Shown: piece after piece, positions 19,538 to 32,222 of the stretch | Layout of the letters: every line of letters starts with the position of its first letter | Numbering within the stretch: the stretch's first letter is position 1 | Assembly: GCA_024330215.1 (NCBI GenBank) | Contig: JANDLU010000005.1 | Coordinates: 1 to 64,000, forward strand | Direction of reading: 5' to 3' | Source of the DNA: Candidatus Gaiellasilicea maunaloa | GTDB taxonomy: Bacteria; Actinomycetota; Thermoleophilia; Gaiellales; Gaiellaceae | DNA length: 64,000 bases | The notes under the pieces: generated by a model | What the model was told of the DNA's origin: nothing | Seen by the model: only the letters and a program-made list of their open reading frames with translations | Database searches by the model: none | Made by a program: the position numbers and the translations under genes

Positions 19538-20547
19538 CGACGCCGTACGACGTCCGCGCTGCACCCCGAGACGAGCGCATCGAAGACATCGCTCGGATCG
19601 ACCCCTGCGAGCGAGCGATGACCGAGGTCGATCTCGATCTCGGGCCACGATTCGAGCCGTAGCGAGCGCGCGCCCTCGTCGGCGCCGAAGCAGAGCAGCC
19701 GCTCGGTGCCGAAGACGCCGCGGCGACCGGTCTGGCGCCGCGCGATTCCCTCGAGCTCGCGAAGCTCGTCGAGCGGGTCGATCCGGACGTTCGAGTCGGA
19801 GCCGATGCAGAGCGAGATTCCGCGGTGCTCGATCCGCGCGGCCGGGAGGAAGCCGTCCGCGAGGTCGGCCTCGGTGGTCGGACACGCGCAGATCGTCGAG
19901 CCCGACTCCGCGAGCAGGTCGAGCTCGGTGCCGTCGGCATGCGTTGCGTGGACGACCGTCGTCAGCGGCCCGAGGCAGCCGGTGCGCGCCAGGAGCTCGA
20001 TCGGCCGGCAGCCGTGCTCGGCCAGGCACTCCTCGATCTCGCGCGGCTGCTCGTCCGCGTGGACATGGAGAGGGAGCCCCTCGGCAGCCGCATAGGCGCC
20101 GAGCTCGCGCAACCAATCCTCCGGGCAGGCGCGGACGGAGTGGGGGGCGAGGCCGACCTTGATTCCGTCCTCGCGCAACGCCTCGAGCTGGCGCAGGTAG
20201 TCGGCGACTGAGTCCTGGCGCATCCGCGGCAGCCCACCGCGCGCGTACGCCGCGAGGAGGAGCACGATCTCGGTCTCGGCCTCCGCCGCCGCCTCGACCG
20301 CAGCACGCGCCTCCTCGAAGCCGAGGTAGTGGAACTCGCCGACCGCCGTGTAACCCGCGGCCCGCAGCTCGCGGTATGCCCTCGCGTAACTCTCCCGGAC
20401 GAGCTCCGGCGTCTGCCGCTCCGCCTCCTCGAGCATCAGCTCCCGCCACGCCCAGAAGTCGCCGCCGCCGGCGCGCCCGCGCAGCGCTCGCTGGAAGGTG
20501 TGCGAGTGCGCGTTGACGAAGCCCGGCAAGACGAGCGTCTCGGTCAC
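19534..20547 (-). CDS. HutF-like amidohydrolase (formimidoylglutamate deiminase type)
   Basis: This 337-residue amidohydrolase is most like HutF, which deiminates N-formimino-L-glutamate in histidine degradation. Metal and family motifs are LPGFVNAHSHTFQRALRG, GEFHYLG, HVHADEQPREIEECLAEHG, TVVHATHAD and ISLCIGSDSNVRIDPLDELR. It lacks most of the N-terminal beta-sandwich strands seen in full HutF (about 450 residues): GTG 20547 puts the start directly before the barrel. A longer frame exists, but it would run antisense through pgsA and shows no family similarity. The substrate may therefore differ. It starts divergently from pgsA with 19 bases between start codons. Confidence 0.78.
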   Translation of the reverse strand: MTETLVLPGFVNAHSHTFQRALRGRAGGGDFWAWRELMLEEAERQTPELVRESYARAYRELRAAGYTAVGEFHYLGFEEARAAVEAAAEAETEIVLLLAAYARGGLPRMRQDSVADYLRQLEALREDGIKVGLAPHSVRACPEDWLRELGAYAAAEGLPLHVHADEQPREIEECLAEHGCRPIELLARTGCLGPLTTVVHATHADGTELDLLAESGSTICACPTTEADLADGFLPAARIEHRGISLCIGSDSNVRIDPLDELRELEGIARRQTGRRGVFGTERLLCFGADEGARSLRLESWPEIEIDLGHRSLAGVDPSDVFDALVSGCSADVVRRR

Positions 20548-20553
20548 GGCCTC

Positions 20554-20560
20554 TATCCTG
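20554..20560. promoter_or_regulatory. Possible bidirectional -10 element for pgsA (+) and the HutF-like gene (-)
   Basis: On the plus strand TATCCT (20554-20559) is seven bases before GTG 20567. On the minus strand CAGGAT (20560-20555) is seven bases before GTG 20547. One seven-base core could thus serve two leaderless divergent transcripts. The minus-strand hexamer is a weaker match. Confidence 0.45.
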
Positions 20561-20566
20561 TCAGGC

Positions 20567-21118
20567 GTGGCCACGCGCGCCGTCTCCGCACCACTCGCGC
20601 AGCTCCCGAACGCGCTCACGCTGCTGCGACTGGCGCTGATTCCCTTCTTCGTCGCCGCGTACGTGGCCGCCGGGGACGGCTCGAGCTGGGCAGCGGGCTG
20701 GATCTTCCTCGTCGCGGGAGTCACGGATCAGGTGGACGGCTTCCTGGCGCGCCGCTGGCGGGTCGAGTCCCGCTTCGGGAAGCTCGCCGACCCGCTCGCC
20801 GACCGGCTGATGATCGACGCCGCCGTGATCCTGCTCTGGCTCGAAGGGAAGCTGCCGTGGCCGGGCGCGCTCGTGATCGTCCTGCGCGATGCGATCCTCG
20901 TCGGCGGCTACCGGCTCCTCATGCCCAAGGGCGTCGAGCTCTCGGTCAGCCTGCTCGGCAAGATCGCAACCTGGCTTCTCTACCTCTCCGTCGGGATCCT
21001 GACAGTCGTCGGTGACGAGACGGAGTGGCCGCTCTGGCTCTTCTGGGTCGCGCTCGCGTTGGCTCTCCTCGCGGCCGCCCAGTACGTCGTGACGGCCCGC
21101 GGGGAGGTGTCCACGTGA
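20567..21118 (+). CDS. pgsA: CDP-alcohol phosphatidyltransferase (PgsA type)
   Basis: This family transfers a phosphatidyl group from CDP-diacylglycerol to an alcohol, such as glycerol-3-phosphate. The signature D-x2-DG-x2-AR-x8-G-x3-D-x3-D is present as [20 protein letters not shown] followed by ADPLADRL. The 183-residue protein has about five to six membrane helices. PgsA is the best guess because of [16 protein letters not shown] at the N-terminus, but other acceptor alcohols are possible. The stop overlaps the next gene (GTGA). In many actinobacteria pgsA lies beside cinA-recA; here it does not. Confidence 0.85.
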
Positions 21119-23640
21119 GAGCCGTCGTGATGGCCGGCGGCGAGGGAACCCGGCTGCGCCCGCTGACCTCGAACCAGCCGAAGCCGATGGTCCCGATCGT
21201 CGGCAAGCCGTGCGTCGAGCATGTCCTCGATCTGCTCAAGCGGCACGGATTCGAGGACGTCGTCGTCACGCTCGCATTCCTGCCGCAGGCGATTCGCAGC
21301 TACTTCGGAACGGGAGACACGCTCGGCCTGAACATCGAGTACTCCGTCGAGGAGCTGCCGCTCGGCACCGCGGGCTCCGTCCGACTCGCCAGCTCGAAGC
21401 TCGACGAGACCTTCCTCGTGATCTCGGGCGATGCGCTCTGCGACGTCGATCTCGGCGCGCTCGTCGCCTTCCACAAGGAGAAGGGCGCCGCCGTCACGAT
21501 CGGACTCAAGTCGGTCGAAAACCCGCTCGAGTTCGGGATCGTCGTCATGGACGAGGACGGGAAGGTCGAGCGCTTCCTCGAGAAACCGTCCTGGGGACAG
21601 GTCTTCTCGGACACGATCAACACCGGGATCTACGTGCTCGAGCCGGAGGTCTTGACCCACATCCCGACCGACGGACCCTACGACTTCTCGAAGGAGCTCT
21701 TCCCGCTCCTCCTCGAGATGGGGCGCCCGCTGTACGGGGTCGTGCTCGACGGCTACTGGCAGGACATCGGCAACCTCGATCAGTACCGGCAGGCGAACTT
21801 CGACGCGCTCGACGAGAAGGTGCGGCTGAACGTCGGCGGGATCCGTCTGCGCGGCAACGTCTGGCTCGGCGAAGGCGCCGAGATCGACGACGTCGAGGAG
21901 CTCGAGGGACCGGCCTTCATCGGCAATTACTCCCGCATCGCTCGGGACGCCTCGGTCGGGCCCTACACGGTGCTCTCGAACGGCGTCACGTTGCGCGAGC
22001 GCGCCCGCACCGTCCGAACCGTGATCGACTCGGCGACGCACGTCGGCCGGAGCACTCTGATCGAAGGCGCGATCGTCGGCCGCTCGTGCGACATCCGCGA
22101 TCACGTGCACATCCACGAGGGCGTCGCGATCGGCGACGAGGTCACGATCGGCTCGGAGGCGAGCGTGATGCCGCACGTCCGGATCTATCCCTACAAGGAG
22201 GTCGAGACCGGGTCGCAGCTCCATGAGAACCTGATCTGGGAGTCGCGCGCCTCGACACGGCTCTTCGGCAAGGACGGCGTCAGCGGGCTCGTCAACGTCG
22301 ACCTGACCCCGGAGACGGCGGTGCGGCTGGCGGCAGCGCTCGGCACGGCGCTGAAGCGCGGCGGCCGTGTCGTCGCGAGTCGCGACTCCGGGCCTGCCTG
22401 TCGGATGATCAAGCGCTGCCTGATCTCAGGGCTGAACGCAACCGGGGTGGACGTCGCCGACCTTCGCGTCTCACCTCCCGCCGTGAGCCGGCACGTCCTG
22501 AAGACGCAGGCGTTCGCCGCGGCGATTCACGTCGGACAGAGCCATCTCGACCCCGAAGCGGTCTTCATTCGCATCTACGAGCCGCCCGGGATCCTGCTCA
22601 CCCAGTCGCTCCAGAAGGAGATCGAGAAGAACTTCACGCGTCAGGAGTTGCGACGCGTCGCCGCCGATGGCGTCGGCTCGGTCTCCTATCCGGCCAGGGT
22701 TCGCGAAAGCTACGCCCAGGATCTCCTCGACGGCCTCGACGCGGACGCGGTACGCGAGCGGGGCTTCCGGATCGTGATCGACTACGGCTACTCGGCCGCC
22801 TCCTTCGTCGTTCCGCTCGTGGTCGGACCGCTGGGGGTCGAGGCGATCTCGGCGCACGGCTTCTCCGCCGAGGGAGGGCCAAGACCGCAGACGCTCGTGG
22901 AGGCGATCGGAAACACGAAACCGCTCGTGACGGCGATCGGCGCCGACTTCGGCGTCGTCTTCGACCGCGGCGCCGAGCGGCTCTACCTGCTCGACGAGCT
23001 GGGCCGGGAGGTGGCGGTCGAGCAAACGCTCCTCCTCTTCCTGAAGCTCCTCGGCGCCAGCGGGGCGTCGGGCAAGGTCGCGTTCCCGATCACGGTGACG
23101 AGCCAGGTGGACGCGCTGGCCGACGGCGCGCTCGAGGTCGTCAGGACGCCGCACTCGCTCGCCGACCTGACCCACGCGGCAACCGCCGATGGGATGGTGT
23201 TCGCAGGCGCGGTCGGCGGCGGCTACGTCTTCCCCGAGTTCCTGCCCGCCTACGACGCCGTCGCGAGCCTCGCGAAGCTGCTCGAGCTGCTCGCGCCGGT
23301 GCGGCAGCCGCTCTCCGAGCTCGTCGCCGAGCTGCCCGAATCGACGCTGATTCACCGTCAGCTCGCCTGTCCCTGGGCGAAGAAGGGGCTCGTGATGCGG
23401 CTGCTGAACGAGCAGCTCGCGGGACGCGACGTCGACCTGACGGACGGGATCAAGCTGCTCGACGCCCGCGGCTGGTCGCAGGTACTACCGGATCCCGACG
23501 AGCCGTTCCTGCATCTCTACGCAGAGGGCGACTCCGCCGAGGCGTCGGCCGAGCTCGAGCAGGAGGTTCGCGACCTCGTCGAGGCGATCATGCAGGGAGA
23601 CGGCGCCGCACCGCGAACTCCGGTGGAAGCCTCAAGCTGA
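21115..23640 (+). CDS. Sugar-phosphate nucleotidyltransferase / phosphomannomutase-like fusion protein
   Basis: The 841-residue protein has three parts. Residues 1-235 are a nucleotidyltransferase with [20 protein letters not shown] and [14 protein letters not shown]. About 250-365 is a left-handed beta-helix of hexapeptide repeats. About 380-830 resembles alpha-D-phosphohexomutases. It is annotated in related bacteria as mannose-1-phosphate guanylyltransferase with a phosphomannomutase domain. The mutase active-site loop TASHNP is replaced by VGQSHLDP and the DGDADR metal loop by FDRGAERL, so mutase activity is doubtful; the C-terminal part may be regulatory. It could supply GDP-mannose for surface glycans. 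It is coupled to pgsA. Confidence 0.85.
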
Positions 23641-23695: not shown

Positions 23696-23968
23696 GTGAA
23701 CGATCGGCGAGAACAAGAGAACGACGTAGAGCCGCTGCCCGATCTCGGAGCGCTCTCCGACGACGAGTTGAAGGCCCTCATCGACCGGCTCTCGGACGAG
23801 GAGGATCAGGTCTCCTACCGGCGGCGGCTCTTGCAGGGCAGGATCGACATCCTGCGTGCAGAACGGACGGCGCGGCTCAAGGGAACGGGAGGCGGCAGCG
23901 ACGTCGACGTCGATCGGCTGACCGACATCCTCGCCTCGCGGGCGACACCCCAGGCGAAGGAGGAATGA
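23696..23968 (+). CDS. RsiG-like c-di-GMP-responsive anti-sigma factor candidate
   Basis: This 90-residue helical protein contains E36-S40-R43-Q47-D51, an exact match to E(X)3S(X)2R(X)3Q(X)3D. That motif is how RsiG binds cyclic di-GMP and then the sporulation sigma factor WhiG. Streptomyces RsiG has two copies in one chain; Rubrobacter RsiG has one and works as a homodimer. The single copy here fits the Rubrobacter form. A predicted antiparallel coiled-coil hairpin (residues 18-60) contains the motif. GTG 23696 has GCGAAAGG upstream. The next genes encode an FHA protein and an FtsR-like regulator. No WhiG-type sigma is recognisable nearby, so the partner is unknown. Confidence 0.75.
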   Translation: MNDRREQENDVEPLPDLGALSDDELKALIDRLSDEEDQVSYRRRLLQGRIDILRAERTARLKGTGGGSDVDVDRLTDILASRATPQAKEE

Positions 23969-24030
23969 GCGTGAGGACTCCGCCGTCAACCTCCGACGCC
24001 CGCGCGTTCCGCGGCAAGGGGCGCGCGTGA
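23965..24030 (+). CDS. Candidate 21-residue micro-ORF bridging rsiG-like and FHA genes
   Basis: ATG 23965 overlaps the stop of the RsiG-like gene (ATGA). The frame, starting MSVRTPPSTSDARAF, ends in a TGA that overlaps the GTG start of the FHA gene. AGGAGG at 23958-23963 is too close for this ATG but is well spaced for an in-frame GTG at 23971. It may simply carry ribosomes from one gene to the next. No homology is claimed. Confidence 0.3.
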   Translation: MSVRTPPSTSDARAFRGKGRA

Positions 24031-24533
24031 GTCACGTCTACTGCCCGGAGTGTGGGTATCAGAACCCGGAGACCGCCAATTTCTGCGCGAAGTGCGGCAC
24101 CCATCTGAAGCAGGAGGACACCGGCGAGCAAACGATGACGTTCACTCCCGAGGACGTGGCGGAGGATCCGGGAACGGCACCGAGTCCCGGCGGCAAGGGG
24201 GGTCCAGGCGGCAAGGGGGATCCCGGCGTCAAGGGGCCTGCGCTCGTCGTGCGCTCCGGCGGCGGCCGCGCGGGCGAGACGTTCTTCCCCTCGGGTGAGC
24301 GGACGCTGATCGGCCGATCCCCGGACTGCGATGTCTTCCTCGACGATGTCACCGTCTCCCGCAAGCACGCCGAGCTCGTCCGGGACGGCGAGCGCTTCAC
24401 GATCAGGGATCTCGGCAGCCTGAACGGCACCTTCGTCAACCGGAGCCGGATCGAGGCGGAGGAGACCGAGATCGAGGACGACGACGAGGTCCAGATCGGG
24501 AAGTACCGGCTGACGTTTCTACGGGGTCGATGA
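24027..24533 (+). CDS. Zinc-ribbon and FHA domain protein (GarA/OdhI-like)
   Basis: The 168-residue protein starts with a zinc ribbon (Cys 6, 9, 20 and 23; CPECGYQNPETANFCAKCG). A Thr/Glu-rich segment with TMTFTPED follows, then a Gly-X-Y linker (GGKGGPGGKGDPGVKGP), then an FHA domain (about residues 85-168) with LIGRSPDCDVFLDD, VSRKHAELV and LGSLNGTFVN. FHA domains bind phosphothreonine. GarA/OdhI proteins are switched by phosphorylation of an N-terminal ETTS motif; that motif is not evident, but the threonine-rich segment could play the part. An ftsR-like merR gene follows, as after garA in other actinobacteria. Confidence 0.85.
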   Translation: MSHVYCPECGYQNPETANFCAKCGTHLKQEDTGEQTMTFTPEDVAEDPGTAPSPGGKGGPGGKGDPGVKGPALVVRSGGGRAGETFFPSGERTLIGRSPDCDVFLDDVTVSRKHAELVRDGERFTIRDLGSLNGTFVNRSRIEAEETEIEDDDEVQIGKYRLTFLRGR

Positions 24534-24643: not shown

Positions 24644-24663
24644 CATGGGGCGGGCGCCCCATG
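24644..24663. promoter_or_regulatory. Palindrome spanning the start codon of the FtsR-like gene
   Basis: CATGGGGCG and CGCCCCATG are perfect 9-base arms around GG; the right arm ends with the ATG of the downstream gene. In RNA it would hide the start codon; in DNA it could be an autoregulatory operator. No Shine-Dalgarno is visible in front. Confidence 0.5.
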
Positions 24664-25356
24664 ACCACGGTGACCAGCTCTAGGTCGGAGCAGCGCCTCC
24701 ATACGATCGGGGCGGTCTGCACGCGCCTGCAGCCGGAGTTCGCGGACATCTCGATCTCGAAGATCCGGTACCTCGAGGATCAGGGACTGCTGACCCCGAA
24801 GCGCACGCGCGGCGGTTACCGGCTCTTCAGCGAGGACGACGTCGAGCGGCTCGAGACGATCCTGCGCCTCCAGCGCGACGAGTTCCTGCCGCTGCGCGTG
24901 ATCCGGCAGGAGCTCTCGAGCGGCGGCGCCGCGGCGGAGCGCAAGCGTCGGCCTCCGACCGGGCTCGGCGACCGCGAGCCGGAGCTCGATCTCGCCGAGC
25001 TCTGCGAGCGCGCTGGAATCGACCGCGAGCTCGCGCAGGCGCTCGAGGAGTTCGGTCTACTCGCTCCGCGGGTCGAGGCCGGCGAGCGTCTCTACCGCGA
25101 GAGCGACGCCGAGATCGCGGCGGCCTGCGGCCTGCTCGCACGCTACGGGATCGACGCGCGGCACCTCCGCACCTTCCGCAACTCTGCCGGGCGCGAGGCA
25201 GGTCTCCTCGAGCAGCTCGTCGCACCGGCGCTGCGGGCTCGGAACCCGGAGCGGAGAAAGTCCGGCCTGAACGACCTCCAGGCTCTCGCCGAGGCCTCGC
25301 AGGAGCTCTCGCGGCTGCTCTTCTGGCGCGAGCTGCGCGCACTGGCCGAACGGTAG
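24661..25356 (+). CDS. MerR-family transcriptional regulator, FtsR-like
   Basis: The 231-residue protein has an N-terminal MerR winged-helix domain (about residues 12-85: HTIGAVCTRLQPEFADISIS, KIRYLEDQGLLTPKRTRGGY, RLFSEDDVERLETILRLQRD). It closely resembles mycobacterial Rv1828 and corynebacterial FtsR, an activator of ftsZ. The C-terminal part, about residues 95-231, is helical and has no cysteine or metal pattern, as in that group. The garA-ftsR neighbourhood is conserved, which supports the assignment. ATG 24661 lies within a perfect palindrome. Confidence 0.82.
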   Translation: MTTVTSSRSEQRLHTIGAVCTRLQPEFADISISKIRYLEDQGLLTPKRTRGGYRLFSEDDVERLETILRLQRDEFLPLRVIRQELSSGGAAAERKRRPPTGLGDREPELDLAELCERAGIDRELAQALEEFGLLAPRVEAGERLYRESDAEIAAACGLLARYGIDARHLRTFRNSAGREAGLLEQLVAPALRARNPERRKSGLNDLQALAEASQELSRLLFWRELRALAER

Positions 25357-25376: not shown

Positions 25377-25895
25377 GTGAGCCTCGATCTCCGCACGCTC
25401 GTCCGTGAAGTCCCGGACTTTCCCCAGCCCGGGGTCGGCTTCAAGGACATCAGTCCGCTCCTCGCGCATCCGGCGGGTCTCCAGCAGGCGATCTCGGACC
25501 TCGCGGAGTGGGGGAAGGCCAAGCGGCCCGACCTCGTGGTCGGCGCCGAGGCGCGCGGCTTCATCCTCGGAGCGGCGATCGCGCGCGAGATCGGATGCGG
25601 GTTCGTGCCCGCCCGCCGCCCGGGCAAGCTGCCGCCCGACACGGTCAGCGTCACCTACGCGCTCGAGTACGGTCAGAACGCGCTCGAGCTCCATCCCTCC
25701 TCGTTCTGGCAGGGCGTGCGCGTGCTCGTCCATGACGACGTGCTCGCGACGGGCGGCACCGTCGAGGCGATCGGAGGCCTGATCGAGCAGCTCGGCGGAG
25801 AGGTCGTCGGAGTCGCGTTCATCATCGACCTCACCTTCCTGAACGGCCGCGAGCGCCTCGCCGGCTACGACGTCCATTCGCTGATCGACTACTAG
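25377..25895 (+). CDS. apt: Adenine phosphoribosyltransferase
   Basis: Apt converts adenine and PRPP to AMP in purine salvage. The 172-residue length is typical. VREVPDFPQPGVGFKDISPL, VVGAEARGFILGAAIARE, FVPARRPGKLP and the PRPP loop VLVHDDVLATGGTVEAI are all present. GTG 25377 follows a TAGAGT hexamer by nine bases, so any leader is very short. It works on the same type of purine pool as the nucleoside importer and hydrolase encoded near the other end of the window. Confidence 0.95.
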   Translation: MSLDLRTLVREVPDFPQPGVGFKDISPLLAHPAGLQQAISDLAEWGKAKRPDLVVGAEARGFILGAAIAREIGCGFVPARRPGKLPPDTVSVTYALEYGQNALELHPSSFWQGVRVLVHDDVLATGGTVEAIGGLIEQLGGEVVGVAFIIDLTFLNGRERLAGYDVHSLIDY

Positions 25896-29204: not shown

Positions 29205-30266
29205 ATGACGACGATCGACATCGACCACATCCTGCGCAACGAGGGAATCCAGCAGCTCCTCGAGAGCGCCGAGCAGGCCGGGTCGTTGCGCGCGGCCGAG
29301 CTCGTCGAGCTCATCGAGGCGCACGAGCTCGACGCGCTCGAGCAGGATGCGCTCTACCGCGAGCTCGAGCAACGCGGAATCGAGCTCGTCCCGGTGGATC
29401 CTGCTGAGCCGGAAGCGCCCGAGCCCCCACCGCCGGCCGCGGCTCAGGAGACGACCACCGACGCGCTTCAGCTCTTCCTCCGCGAGGCCGGTCGTCATCA
29501 GCTCCTGACCGCGGCCCAGGAAGTGGAGCTCGCGAAGCGGATCGAGCGCGGCGACACGCAGGCGAAGCAGCGGATGATCTCGTCGAACCTGCGGCTCGTC
29601 GTCTCGATCGCCAAGAACTACCGCAACCAGGGCCTGCCGTTCCTCGATCTGATCCAGGAGGGCACGCTCGGGTTGATCCGCGCCGTCGAGAAGTTCGACT
29701 GGCGCCGCGGCTTCAAGTTCTCGACCTACGCGACTTGGTGGATCCGCCAGGCGGTCGCGAGAGCGCTCGCGGACAAGGCGCGGACGATCCGGATGCCGGT
29801 TCACATCGTCGAGCGGCTGCAGAAGATGAATCGCGCCGAACGGACACTGTGGACGCAGCTCAGCCGGGAGCCGACGCTCGAGGAGATCGCCGAGGAGGCC
29901 TCGCTTCCGCTCCAACAGGCGATCGAGGTCCGCGCCGCCGCGCGCGCATCGACGAGCCTCGACCAGCCGGTCGGCGAGACCGAGGACGCCGTCTTCGGCG
30001 ACTTCGTCGCCGGCGACGGCCCTCTACCCGAGGAGGAGGTCGAGGTCTCGCTCCGCAGCCAGGCGCTGCGAGAGGCGCTGGGCACGCTCGGCGACCGCGA
30101 GCGGCAGGTCGTGACCCTGCGCTACGGGCTCTCCGACTCCGAGCCGAAGACCCTCGAGGAGATCGGCCGGCGTCTCGGGCTCACCCGCGAGCGGGTACGG
30201 CAGATCGAGATCGACTCGCTCAAGCGTCTCTCGACATTGCGCGAGATGGAGGCCGTCGGGCTCTAG
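29205..30266 (+). CDS. rpoD: RNA polymerase primary sigma factor (RpoD/SigA)
   Basis: The 353-residue sigma-70 factor has an N-terminal region 1.1-like segment (residues 1-60), an acidic Pro-rich linker, region 1.2 ([20 protein letters not shown]), region 2 ([59 protein letters not shown]), region 3, and region 4 ending [20 protein letters not shown]. Region 1.1 suggests it is the housekeeping factor. A second RpoD-type gene runs towards it from the minus strand, with nine bases between the stop codons. Confidence 0.93.
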
Positions 30267-30275
30267 GCTTCGGCG

Positions 30276-31232
30276 TCAGCTGCGCAGGTAGAACTCGAGT
30301 GCCGGGGCGACCGAGCGCAGCTCGCGGAGTGCGCGCGACTCGAGCTGCCGCACCCGCTCGCGGGTGATCCCGAGGCCGGCACCCACCTCTTCGAGCGTCT
30401 CCGGCGCGATCCCGTCGAGACCGAAGCGCCGGCTGACCACGTGGCGCATGCGCGGGTTCAGCGACTCCAGGGCCACCGCGAGCTCCTGGGAGCGCAGCCG
30501 CTCGGCCGTCTCGACGTCCGGCTCGGCCGACTTCGTGTCCTGGAGCAGATCGCCGTAGAGACTCTCGCCGTCGCCGACGGGCGTCTCGAGGCTGAGCGAG
30601 TCCTCGACGAGCTCGAGCAGCTCGCGTACACGCAGCGCCGTAAAGCCGCTCTCCTCCGCGATCTCCTCGAGCTTCGGCTCGCGGTTCAGCTTCTGCGCGA
30701 GCAGCCGCCGGGAGCGCGTCACCCGCCGGACTTGGTCGGCGACGTGCACGGGGAGCCGGATCGTGCGTCCCTGCTCGGCGAGGGCGCGCGTGACGGCCTG
30801 GCGAATCCACCAGGTCGCATAGGTCGAGAGCTTGAAGCCCATCCGGTAGTCGAACTTCTCGACCGCCCGGATCAGGCCGAGATTGCCTTCCTGGATCAGA
30901 TCGAGCAGCGGCACCCCCGCCTTCGTGTAGTTGCGGGTGATCGACATCACGAGTCGTAGGTTCGACTCGATCAGCTTGCGCTTGGCCGCCTCGTCGCCGA
31001 GATCCTTGCGGCGTGCGAGCTCGCGCTCCTCGTTGACCGTGAGGAGCCGGCCGTCGCCGATCGCCCGGACGTAGAGCTTGAGCGGATCCTGGGTCGCCTC
31101 CGCGGCTGGGGCGTCGGCAGGCTCGTCCTCGGGCTCCGTCTCCTCCCCGGCCGGATCGTCGAGCGCGGGTAGGAGCTCCAGGTGCGGCTCGGACGCGAGG
31201 TCTCCGAGGGGCTCTGCTGCGTTGTGCTCCAC
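30276..31232 (-). CDS. Second RpoD-family sigma-70 factor
   Basis: The 318-residue protein has region 1.2 ([20 protein letters not shown]), region 2 ([59 protein letters not shown]), region 3 and region 4 ([20 protein letters not shown]). The acidic leader is short and region 1.1 is absent, so it is probably a group 2 alternative factor, although it may share essential roles. Region 2.4 residues match its partner, so the -10 preference should be similar. GTG 31232 is chosen; the frame runs to a TTG at 31379 but the added residues look unrelated to sigma factors. Confidence 0.88.
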
Positions 31233-31424
31233 TGTGCCGGATCTATCGGCGTGGATCGGCCGAGGCTTGAGCCTCCGGTGCTCGGACGGGCGAGGGAACA
31301 CGTCGCGGGGCACGAATCTGAGCTGCGAGTCGACGCCCGTCCTAACTTCCCCAAAACACCTTTCGTCTAGCCTTTTCAAGGCCAGTCTTCACCAGCCGAT
31401 AACGAACCGAGGATCAGTAGCACG

Positions 31425-32222
31425 ATGTGTGGTATTGCCGGATACAGCCTCGATCCAGCCTCGAACGTCAGGAGGACGCTCGCGGCGCAGGCGCTCCTGG
31501 CCGGAATCGCGGAGCGAGGCGCCGATGCAGTCGGCTACGCCTTCAGGAGCACCGACTCTGCTGTCAGCGTCGTCAAGCGGCGTTCGGGAGCGAGCGCTCT
31601 GCTCGACGAGCTGCACGTGCCCGCGGCCGCGACTCAGGTGCTCGTGCACGTCCGCGACTACACCAAGGGCCATCCCACGATCGAGGCGAACAACCACCCG
31701 ATCAGGCACGGCGCTGTGGTCGGGATCCACAACGGGATCATCGTCAACGACGACGAGATCTTCGAGCGTTACGGCTTCCAACGGGCCACTCCCGAGATGA
31801 CCGTCGACTCCGAGGCGATCTTCGCGCTCGCCGAGCACGCCGACGGTCGCTCCGAGGCGATCGAGGAGCTGCACGGCGCGATGGCCACGAGCTGGCTCGA
31901 CGAGCGCGCGCCCTCCACGCTCTTCCTCGCCCGCGCGGTCGGCCGGCCGCTCTGGATCGGGACGACCGGCAAGGAGCTCTTCTTCGCCTCGACCCGCGAC
32001 GCGCTGGACGTGCTGGAACGGACGATCCGGCTGACTCTGCGCAAGCGCGAGCTCGACGAAGGCACGTTGCTCCACGTGATCGACGGCAGCGTCGAGGCCG
32101 TCCATCGTTTTCATCCGGATCGGTCCTACATCGAGGAGACGATCCTTCCTTCGGTTCGAGCCCCGCAGGAGGGCGTCTCCTGTCTCAAGCGGCTCGCCGC
32201 GATCGCCCTCGCGGCCGCCTAG
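31425..32222 (+). CDS. Class II glutamine amidotransferase, stand-alone domain
   Basis: The 265-residue protein is an N-terminal-nucleophile glutaminase like the first domain of GlmS/PurF. After Met removal Cys2 of MCGIAGYSLD becomes the nucleophile. VLVHVRDYTKGHPTIEANNH, GAVVGIHNGIIVND and MTVDSEAIFALAEHADG match the glutamine-binding residues. No synthase or isomerase domain follows, so the acceptor of the ammonia is unknown. It is divergent from the second sigma gene across 192 bases; GAGGAT lies before the ATG. Its stop overlaps the converging HEAR gene by four bases. Confidence 0.88.
   Translation: MCGIAGYSLDPASNVRRTLAAQALLAGIAERGADAVGYAFRSTDSAVSVVKRRSGASALLDELHVPAAATQVLVHVRDYTKGHPTIEANNHPIRHGAVVGIHNGIIVNDDEIFERYGFQRATPEMTVDSEAIFALAEHADGRSEAIEELHGAMATSWLDERAPSTLFLARAVGRPLWIGTTGKELFFASTRDALDVLERTIRLTLRKRELDEGTLLHVIDGSVEAVHRFHPDRSYIEETILPSVRAPQEGVSCLKRLAAIALAAA

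What the first reader, a model, noticed from the sequence alone, without database searches (positions are those of the whole stretch)
23696..23968. Single-motif RsiG-like c-di-GMP sensor next to FHA and FtsR-like genes
E36-S40-R43-Q47-D51 matches E(X)3S(X)2R(X)3Q(X)3D exactly. Two-motif RsiG (Streptomyces) and one-motif homodimeric RsiG (Rubrobacter) sequester WhiG when bound to c-di-GMP. A one-motif form in a garA-ftsR-like neighbourhood suggests c-di-GMP control tied to division or differentiation. No WhiG is nearby, so the partner could be another sigma factor, including one of the RpoD types at 29205-31232.
Basis: partly seen in the sequence, partly recalled or inferred. Interest (0 to 1): 0.68.

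Follow-up and report, generated by a model that had tools for sequence, protein, structure and literature searches.

The report
Single-motif RsiG, partner is WhiG
The small gene encodes a known kind of c-di-GMP-dependent switch protein (RsiG) that most likely holds the sigma factor WhiG inactive; it is an ordinary, conserved gene in this group of bacteria, although some relatives carry doubled versions of it that seem not to have been described.

Summary
Window 23696-23968 (+) encodes a 90-aa protein with the exact motif E36-S40-R43-Q47-D51. It is a Pfam RsiG member (PF22802, E 2.8e-23), and its only good PDB matches are the Streptomyces and Rubrobacter RsiG structures. Single-motif RsiGs of Thermoleophilia were published in 2021, so this is a new member of a known kind. 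PF22802 occurs in 308 of 399 sampled genomes of the class, in a conserved pgsA - rsiG - FHA - ftsR - apt neighbourhood.

The genome has a clear WhiG on another contig. Of nine sigma factors checked, only WhiG carries the K, G, R residues that touch c-di-GMP; both RpoD types in the window lack them. RsiG and WhiG tend to be lost together. The genome has ten GGDEF proteins, a type IV pilus cluster and no detected flagellin. The likely role is c-di-GMP-armed sequestration of WhiG. The regulon is unresolved: a promoter scan found no enrichment.

One by-product looks new. Some Thermoleophilia have twin-motif RsiGs at the same locus, and in one genus they look like a recent tandem fusion. The published account gives only single-motif forms in this class.

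The parts
23696..23968 (+). rsiG: single-motif RsiG-family anti-sigma factor, 90 aa, GTG start
   Evidence: Pfam PF22802 E 2.8e-23; PDB RsiG matches; predicted helix 22-61 with a short C-terminal helix 72-82
23801..23848 (+). c-di-GMP-binding motif E36-x3-S40-x2-R43-x3-Q47-x3-D51
   Evidence: Read directly from the sequence; E36, S40, R43 and D51 invariant in the alignment of nine relatives, position 47 is Q or H
24027..24533 (+). Neighbour: zinc ribbon + FHA protein, OdhI/GarA-like (conserved neighbour, not shown to be part of the switch)
   Evidence: Pfam FHA 4.2e-23 and Zn_Ribbon_1 2.7e-9; NCBIfam OdhI 109.7 bits, below cut-off 200; synteny
24661..25356 (+). Neighbour: MerR-family regulator FtsR
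   Evidence: NCBIfam NF050798 210.1 bits, cut-off 150; synteny
21025..23640 (+). Upstream neighbour: sugar-1-phosphate nucleotidyltransferase fused to phosphomannomutase-type domains
   Evidence: Pfam NTP_transferase 3.1e-55 and PGM_PMM_I 1.1e-19
20498..21118 (+). Upstream neighbour: pgsA
   Evidence: TIGR00560 114.1 bits, cut-off 109.1
25377..25895 (+). Downstream neighbour: apt, adenine phosphoribosyltransferase
   Evidence: NF002636 214.8 bits, cut-off 125

Best explanation
The gene encodes a single-motif RsiG, an anti-sigma factor. Two copies would pair as an antiparallel coiled coil, and each helix would supply one E-S-R-Q-D motif to hold a dimer of c-di-GMP. [quoted passage not shown] When c-di-GMP falls, WhiG is released. 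The likely outputs, by analogy with Rubrobacter, are type IV pili and c-di-GMP turnover genes. Shown here by sequence: the family, the motif, a WhiG with the c-di-GMP-contacting residues, diguanylate cyclases, a pilus cluster, and no detected flagellin. Inferred from the published relatives: homodimerisation, ligand binding and WhiG sequestration. Not established: the regulon.
For: Family and motif. The genome has one RsiG, one WhiG above cut-off and ten GGDEF proteins; four of the seven scanned are GGDEF-HD proteins. WhiG has K, G, R at the positions of S. venezuelae K57/G61/R62; six other sigma factors aligned the same way and two read from pairwise alignments do not have the trio. WhiG is in 23 of 24 sampled genomes with RsiG but in 4 of 20 without it (Fisher p 2e-7, not corrected for kinship). 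The published single-motif RsiGs, three of them from Thermoleophilia, co-purify with their WhiG and self-interact; c-di-GMP binding is shown for Conexibacter and Rubrobacter, and the Rubrobacter complex is solved (PMC8325347). A pil cluster shares contig C1 with an MshEN protein and a GGDEF-HD protein. No flagellin was found.
Against: No binding or pull-down data exist for this protein. The WhiG promoter consensus is not clearly enriched in the genome (36 hits against 28 for the reversed control at up to two mismatches) and gives nothing above chance in the pil region, so the pilus output rests on analogy. The assembly is a fragmented draft (200 contigs, about 5% contamination). One same-genus genome (G319, 69% complete) has RsiG but no detected WhiG.
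Confidence: 0.9

Rival explanations
1. RsiG partners one of the RpoD-type sigma factors encoded at 29205-31379.
For: They lie about 5 kb away in the same window.
Against: Both lack the K-G-R residues that contact c-di-GMP (V-K-N and M-R-N). A bona fide WhiG exists. RsiG tends to be absent where WhiG is absent; that RpoD-type sigmas persist in those genomes is expected from general knowledge and was not tested.
Confidence: 0.03
2. RsiG acts on the neighbouring FHA/FtsR proteins and links c-di-GMP to cell division.
For: The rsiG-FHA-ftsR order is conserved throughout the sampled class.
Against: None of the 77 Streptomyces-type RsiG loci fetched has FHA or FtsR genes detected nearby, so the genes do not travel together generally. 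No interaction evidence exists, and the conserved order also holds unrelated genes such as pgsA and apt.
Confidence: 0.05
3. The switch is RsiG-WhiG as above, but it controls something other than type IV pili in this organism.
For: No WhiG-type promoter was found near the pil cluster. The best consensus-like sites sit elsewhere, for example 31376-31402 in the window, 22 bp before a glutamine-amidotransferase-like gene.
Against: Those sites are not clearly more frequent than the control, and the family-wide scan gave few hits. A pil cluster with linked c-di-GMP genes is present and flagellin was not found.
Confidence: 0.4

Closest known systems
Single-motif RsiG of Rubrobacter radiotolerans, R. 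xylanophilus, Conexibacter woesei, Thermoleophilum album and Patulibacter medicamentivorans (PMC8325347; PDB 7lq2-7lq4)
   Same: Size, single exact motif, long helix, a WhiG in the genome and the same lineage type.
   Different: A different genome; no biochemistry done. The conserved locus (pgsA-rsiG-FHA-ftsR-apt) is added here; the words synteny and garA do not occur in the paper's main text.
Twin-motif RsiG of Streptomyces venezuelae (PDB 6pfj)
   Same: Same family and motif; its N-terminal half aligns with residues 14-81.
   Different: Two motifs in one monomer; controls sporulation; in Streptomyces-type loci no FHA or ftsR gene was detected nearby.
garA-ftsR region of actinobacteria
   Same: An FHA protein followed by FtsR, with pgsA upstream.
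   Different: rsiG stands in front of the FHA gene, and the FHA protein has an N-terminal zinc ribbon and scores below the OdhI cut-off. Comparison with mycobacterial gene order is from memory.

Membership tests
Single-motif RsiG | RsiG family sequence | tested here: met
   PF22802 81.8 bits, cut-off 27
Single-motif RsiG | Exactly one E(X)3S(X)2R(X)3[QH](X)3D motif in a short protein | tested here: met
   90 aa, one motif
Single-motif RsiG | Motif on a long helix able to form a coiled coil | tested here: met
   Predicted helix 22-61, mean pLDDT 76 overall and above 90 in the core; the dimer itself was not modelled
Single-motif RsiG | Cognate WhiG in the genome with c-di-GMP-contacting K, G, R | tested here: met
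Single-motif RsiG | Homodimerisation | not testable with these tools
   No multimer prediction or experiment available
Single-motif RsiG | c-di-GMP binding and c-di-GMP-dependent WhiG binding | not testable with these tools
   Needs biochemistry
Rubrobacter-type WhiG regulon (type IV pili) | WhiG promoters upstream of pil genes | tested here: inconclusive
   No enrichment in the genome or in the pil region; the pil contig ends near the operon, so the promoter may be missing from the assembly

The most novel reading that the evidence does not exclude
Twin-motif RsiG arose more than once. Within Thermoleophilia, at the same chromosomal locus, the single-motif gene was tandem-duplicated and fused independently in at least two lineages (genus g97 of family f12 and genus g2 of family f1), apart from the duplication behind Streptomyces RsiG. 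That would be convergent evolution of a homodimer into a monomer.
Probability: 0.6. Interest if true: 0.55.

Novelty: new member of a known kind. Interest (0 to 1): 0.3.

Why it matters
The gene itself adds one more example to a published switch and shows that RsiG is the norm in its class, in a conserved gene neighbourhood and tied to WhiG. The related twin-motif genes matter more: they would let the step from homodimer to fused monomer be studied in close relatives, some of which still keep what looks like the start codon of the second copy.

Tried and rejected
RpoD-type partner: rejected on residues and co-occurrence. WhiG regulon by consensus scan: no clear enrichment. A site shared by two genomes of the genus (C141:9485 and G319 C357) has no plausible close downstream gene and matches no Rfam family, so it was dropped. 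Conservation of the window site 31376-31402 in the same-genus genome could not be judged because the corresponding stretch was not in the fetched contig. Structure search with the fused twin protein matched only unrelated helical proteins. Tree tests on 56 columns could not exclude a shared origin of g2 or g97 C-halves with Streptomyces C-halves (p 0.47 and 0.345).

Full report
Observation. The ORF at 23696-23968 (+) encodes 90 aa with the motif E36-S40-R43-Q47-D51. It is a Pfam RsiG protein (PF22802, 81.8 bits, E 2.8e-23), and its only convincing PDB matches are the RsiGs of S. venezuelae and Rubrobacter. It is the only RsiG in the genome. A model built with nine aligned sequences gives one long helix (22-61) carrying the motif and a short C-terminal helix, as expected for a single-motif RsiG. 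The neighbours are pgsA, a sugar-nucleotide enzyme, a zinc-ribbon FHA protein, FtsR and apt.

Known background. Schumacher et al. 2021 (PMC8325347) described single-motif RsiGs in Rubrobacteria and Thermoleophilia. They showed self-interaction, co-purification with WhiG and c-di-GMP binding, and solved the Rubrobacter (RsiG)2-(c-di-GMP)2-WhiG complex. Type IV pili were proposed as the output in Rubrobacter. The closest named record (L019, 91% identity) is labelled only Actinomycetota; the next two (L020, L021) are Thermoleophilia MAGs. The class of the window genome is therefore very probably Thermoleophilia, although its handle carries no name.

Is it typical? In a sample of 399 genomes of the class, 308 have PF22802. 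In all 32 RsiG loci compared (29 best-scoring matches and three named records), the FHA gene follows RsiG; FtsR and apt follow in most, with pgsA or the sugar-nucleotide gene upstream in nearly all. None of 77 Streptomyces-type loci shows the FHA or FtsR genes nearby.

Which sigma? The genome has one WhiG above the curated cut-off, at C124:6051-6725 (286 bits). It aligns with S. venezuelae WhiG over 250 residues. At the three sigma-2 positions that touch c-di-GMP in the solved complex (K57, G61, R62) it has K, G, R. The two window RpoD types have V-K-N and M-R-N, and four other sigma factors also differ. Two more, read by pairwise alignment, have arginine in place of the K and the G. One of the ten full-length sigma-70 proteins, on contig C13, was not checked. 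WhiG is in 23 of 24 sampled genomes with RsiG and in 4 of 20 without it. All ten sampled genomes of genus g36 lack both. The Fisher p of 2e-7 ignores kinship: the losses may be only a few independent events. The four exceptions are 68-88% complete, so RsiG may simply be missing from their assemblies.

Signal and output. There are ten GGDEF proteins, several joined to HD domains that resemble HD-GYP phosphodiesterases. A type IV pilus cluster (T2SSE ATPase, PilM, PilN, PilO, T2SSF) lies on contig C1, with an MshEN-domain protein and a GGDEF-HD protein a few kb away. Flagellin was not found. A scan for the WhiG consensus gave 36 sites with up to two mismatches against 28 for the reversed control, and the pil region gave four against 3.6 expected at three mismatches. 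The regulon is therefore open.

By-product: twin-motif RsiGs in the class. Several groups carry two RsiG matches in one open frame: all seven sampled genomes of genus g2 (same family as the window), three f2 genomes, four genomes of genus g97, and G125 in f5. The g2, f2 and g97 genes sit at the same locus, between pgsA or the sugar-nucleotide gene and FHA-FtsR; the f5 case was not placed. The two halves are 57-59% identical in g97, 43-54% in g2, 25-30% in f2 and 27-32% in Streptomyces. In g97 the C-half is 75-79% identical to single-motif proteins of other families, more than to its own N-half. Two of the four g97 genes retain an in-frame ATG preceded by an AAGGGAG sequence just before the C-half, which looks like the start of a formerly separate gene. 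In the tree the g97 halves both fall among single-motif proteins of families f8, f10, f11 and f5 (89/84), and the g2 halves both fall in a clade with f1 singles (98/100*). A common origin of the g2 and g97 C-halves is borderline rejected (p 0.047), but a link of either with Streptomyces C-halves is not rejected. With 56 columns this cannot be settled by the tree; the shared locus, half-to-half identity and the relic start favour at least two further duplications. The published text names Rubrobacteria and Thermoleophilia as the clades with single-motif forms and proposes one internal duplication giving rise to the twin forms elsewhere. No other paper on this was found in the library.

Limits. 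The genome is a 200-contig draft at 97% completeness and 5% contamination, no experiment was possible, and dimer formation was not modelled. The model of the g97 twin protein has mean pLDDT 74 with two long helices, but structure search gave only unrelated helical proteins, so it adds little.

Noticed in passing
L243:8575-9144, L236:8505-9062, L246:8615-9178, L247:8407-8964 (genus g97): Twin-motif RsiG at the orthologous locus with halves 57-59% identical; two of the four genes keep a possible internal start codon before the second half. Looks like a recent tandem duplication and fusion.
   Followed up: partly
L232, L233, L234, L235, L241, L242, L245 (genus g2): Twin-motif RsiG in the window's own family, halves 43-54% identical; G003 has two further places with RsiG matches and a second WhiG.
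   Followed up: partly
L237, L240, L244 (family f2): Twin-motif RsiG with strongly diverged halves (25-30% identical); the second motif is kept with H in two genes and ends in E in the third. A genus of the same family, g36, lacks both RsiG and WhiG in all ten sampled genomes.
   Followed up: partly
window 31376-31402 (+): TCAAG-N14-GCCGATAA, a WhiG-like promoter match, ends 22 bp before a class II glutamine-amidotransferase-like gene at 31425; such sites are not clearly above chance genome-wide.
   Followed up: partly
L231:8553-18752 (contig C1:139552-149751): Type IV pilus cluster with an MshEN-domain protein and a GGDEF-HD protein on the same contig, suggesting a pilus-linked c-di-GMP module.
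   Followed up: partly
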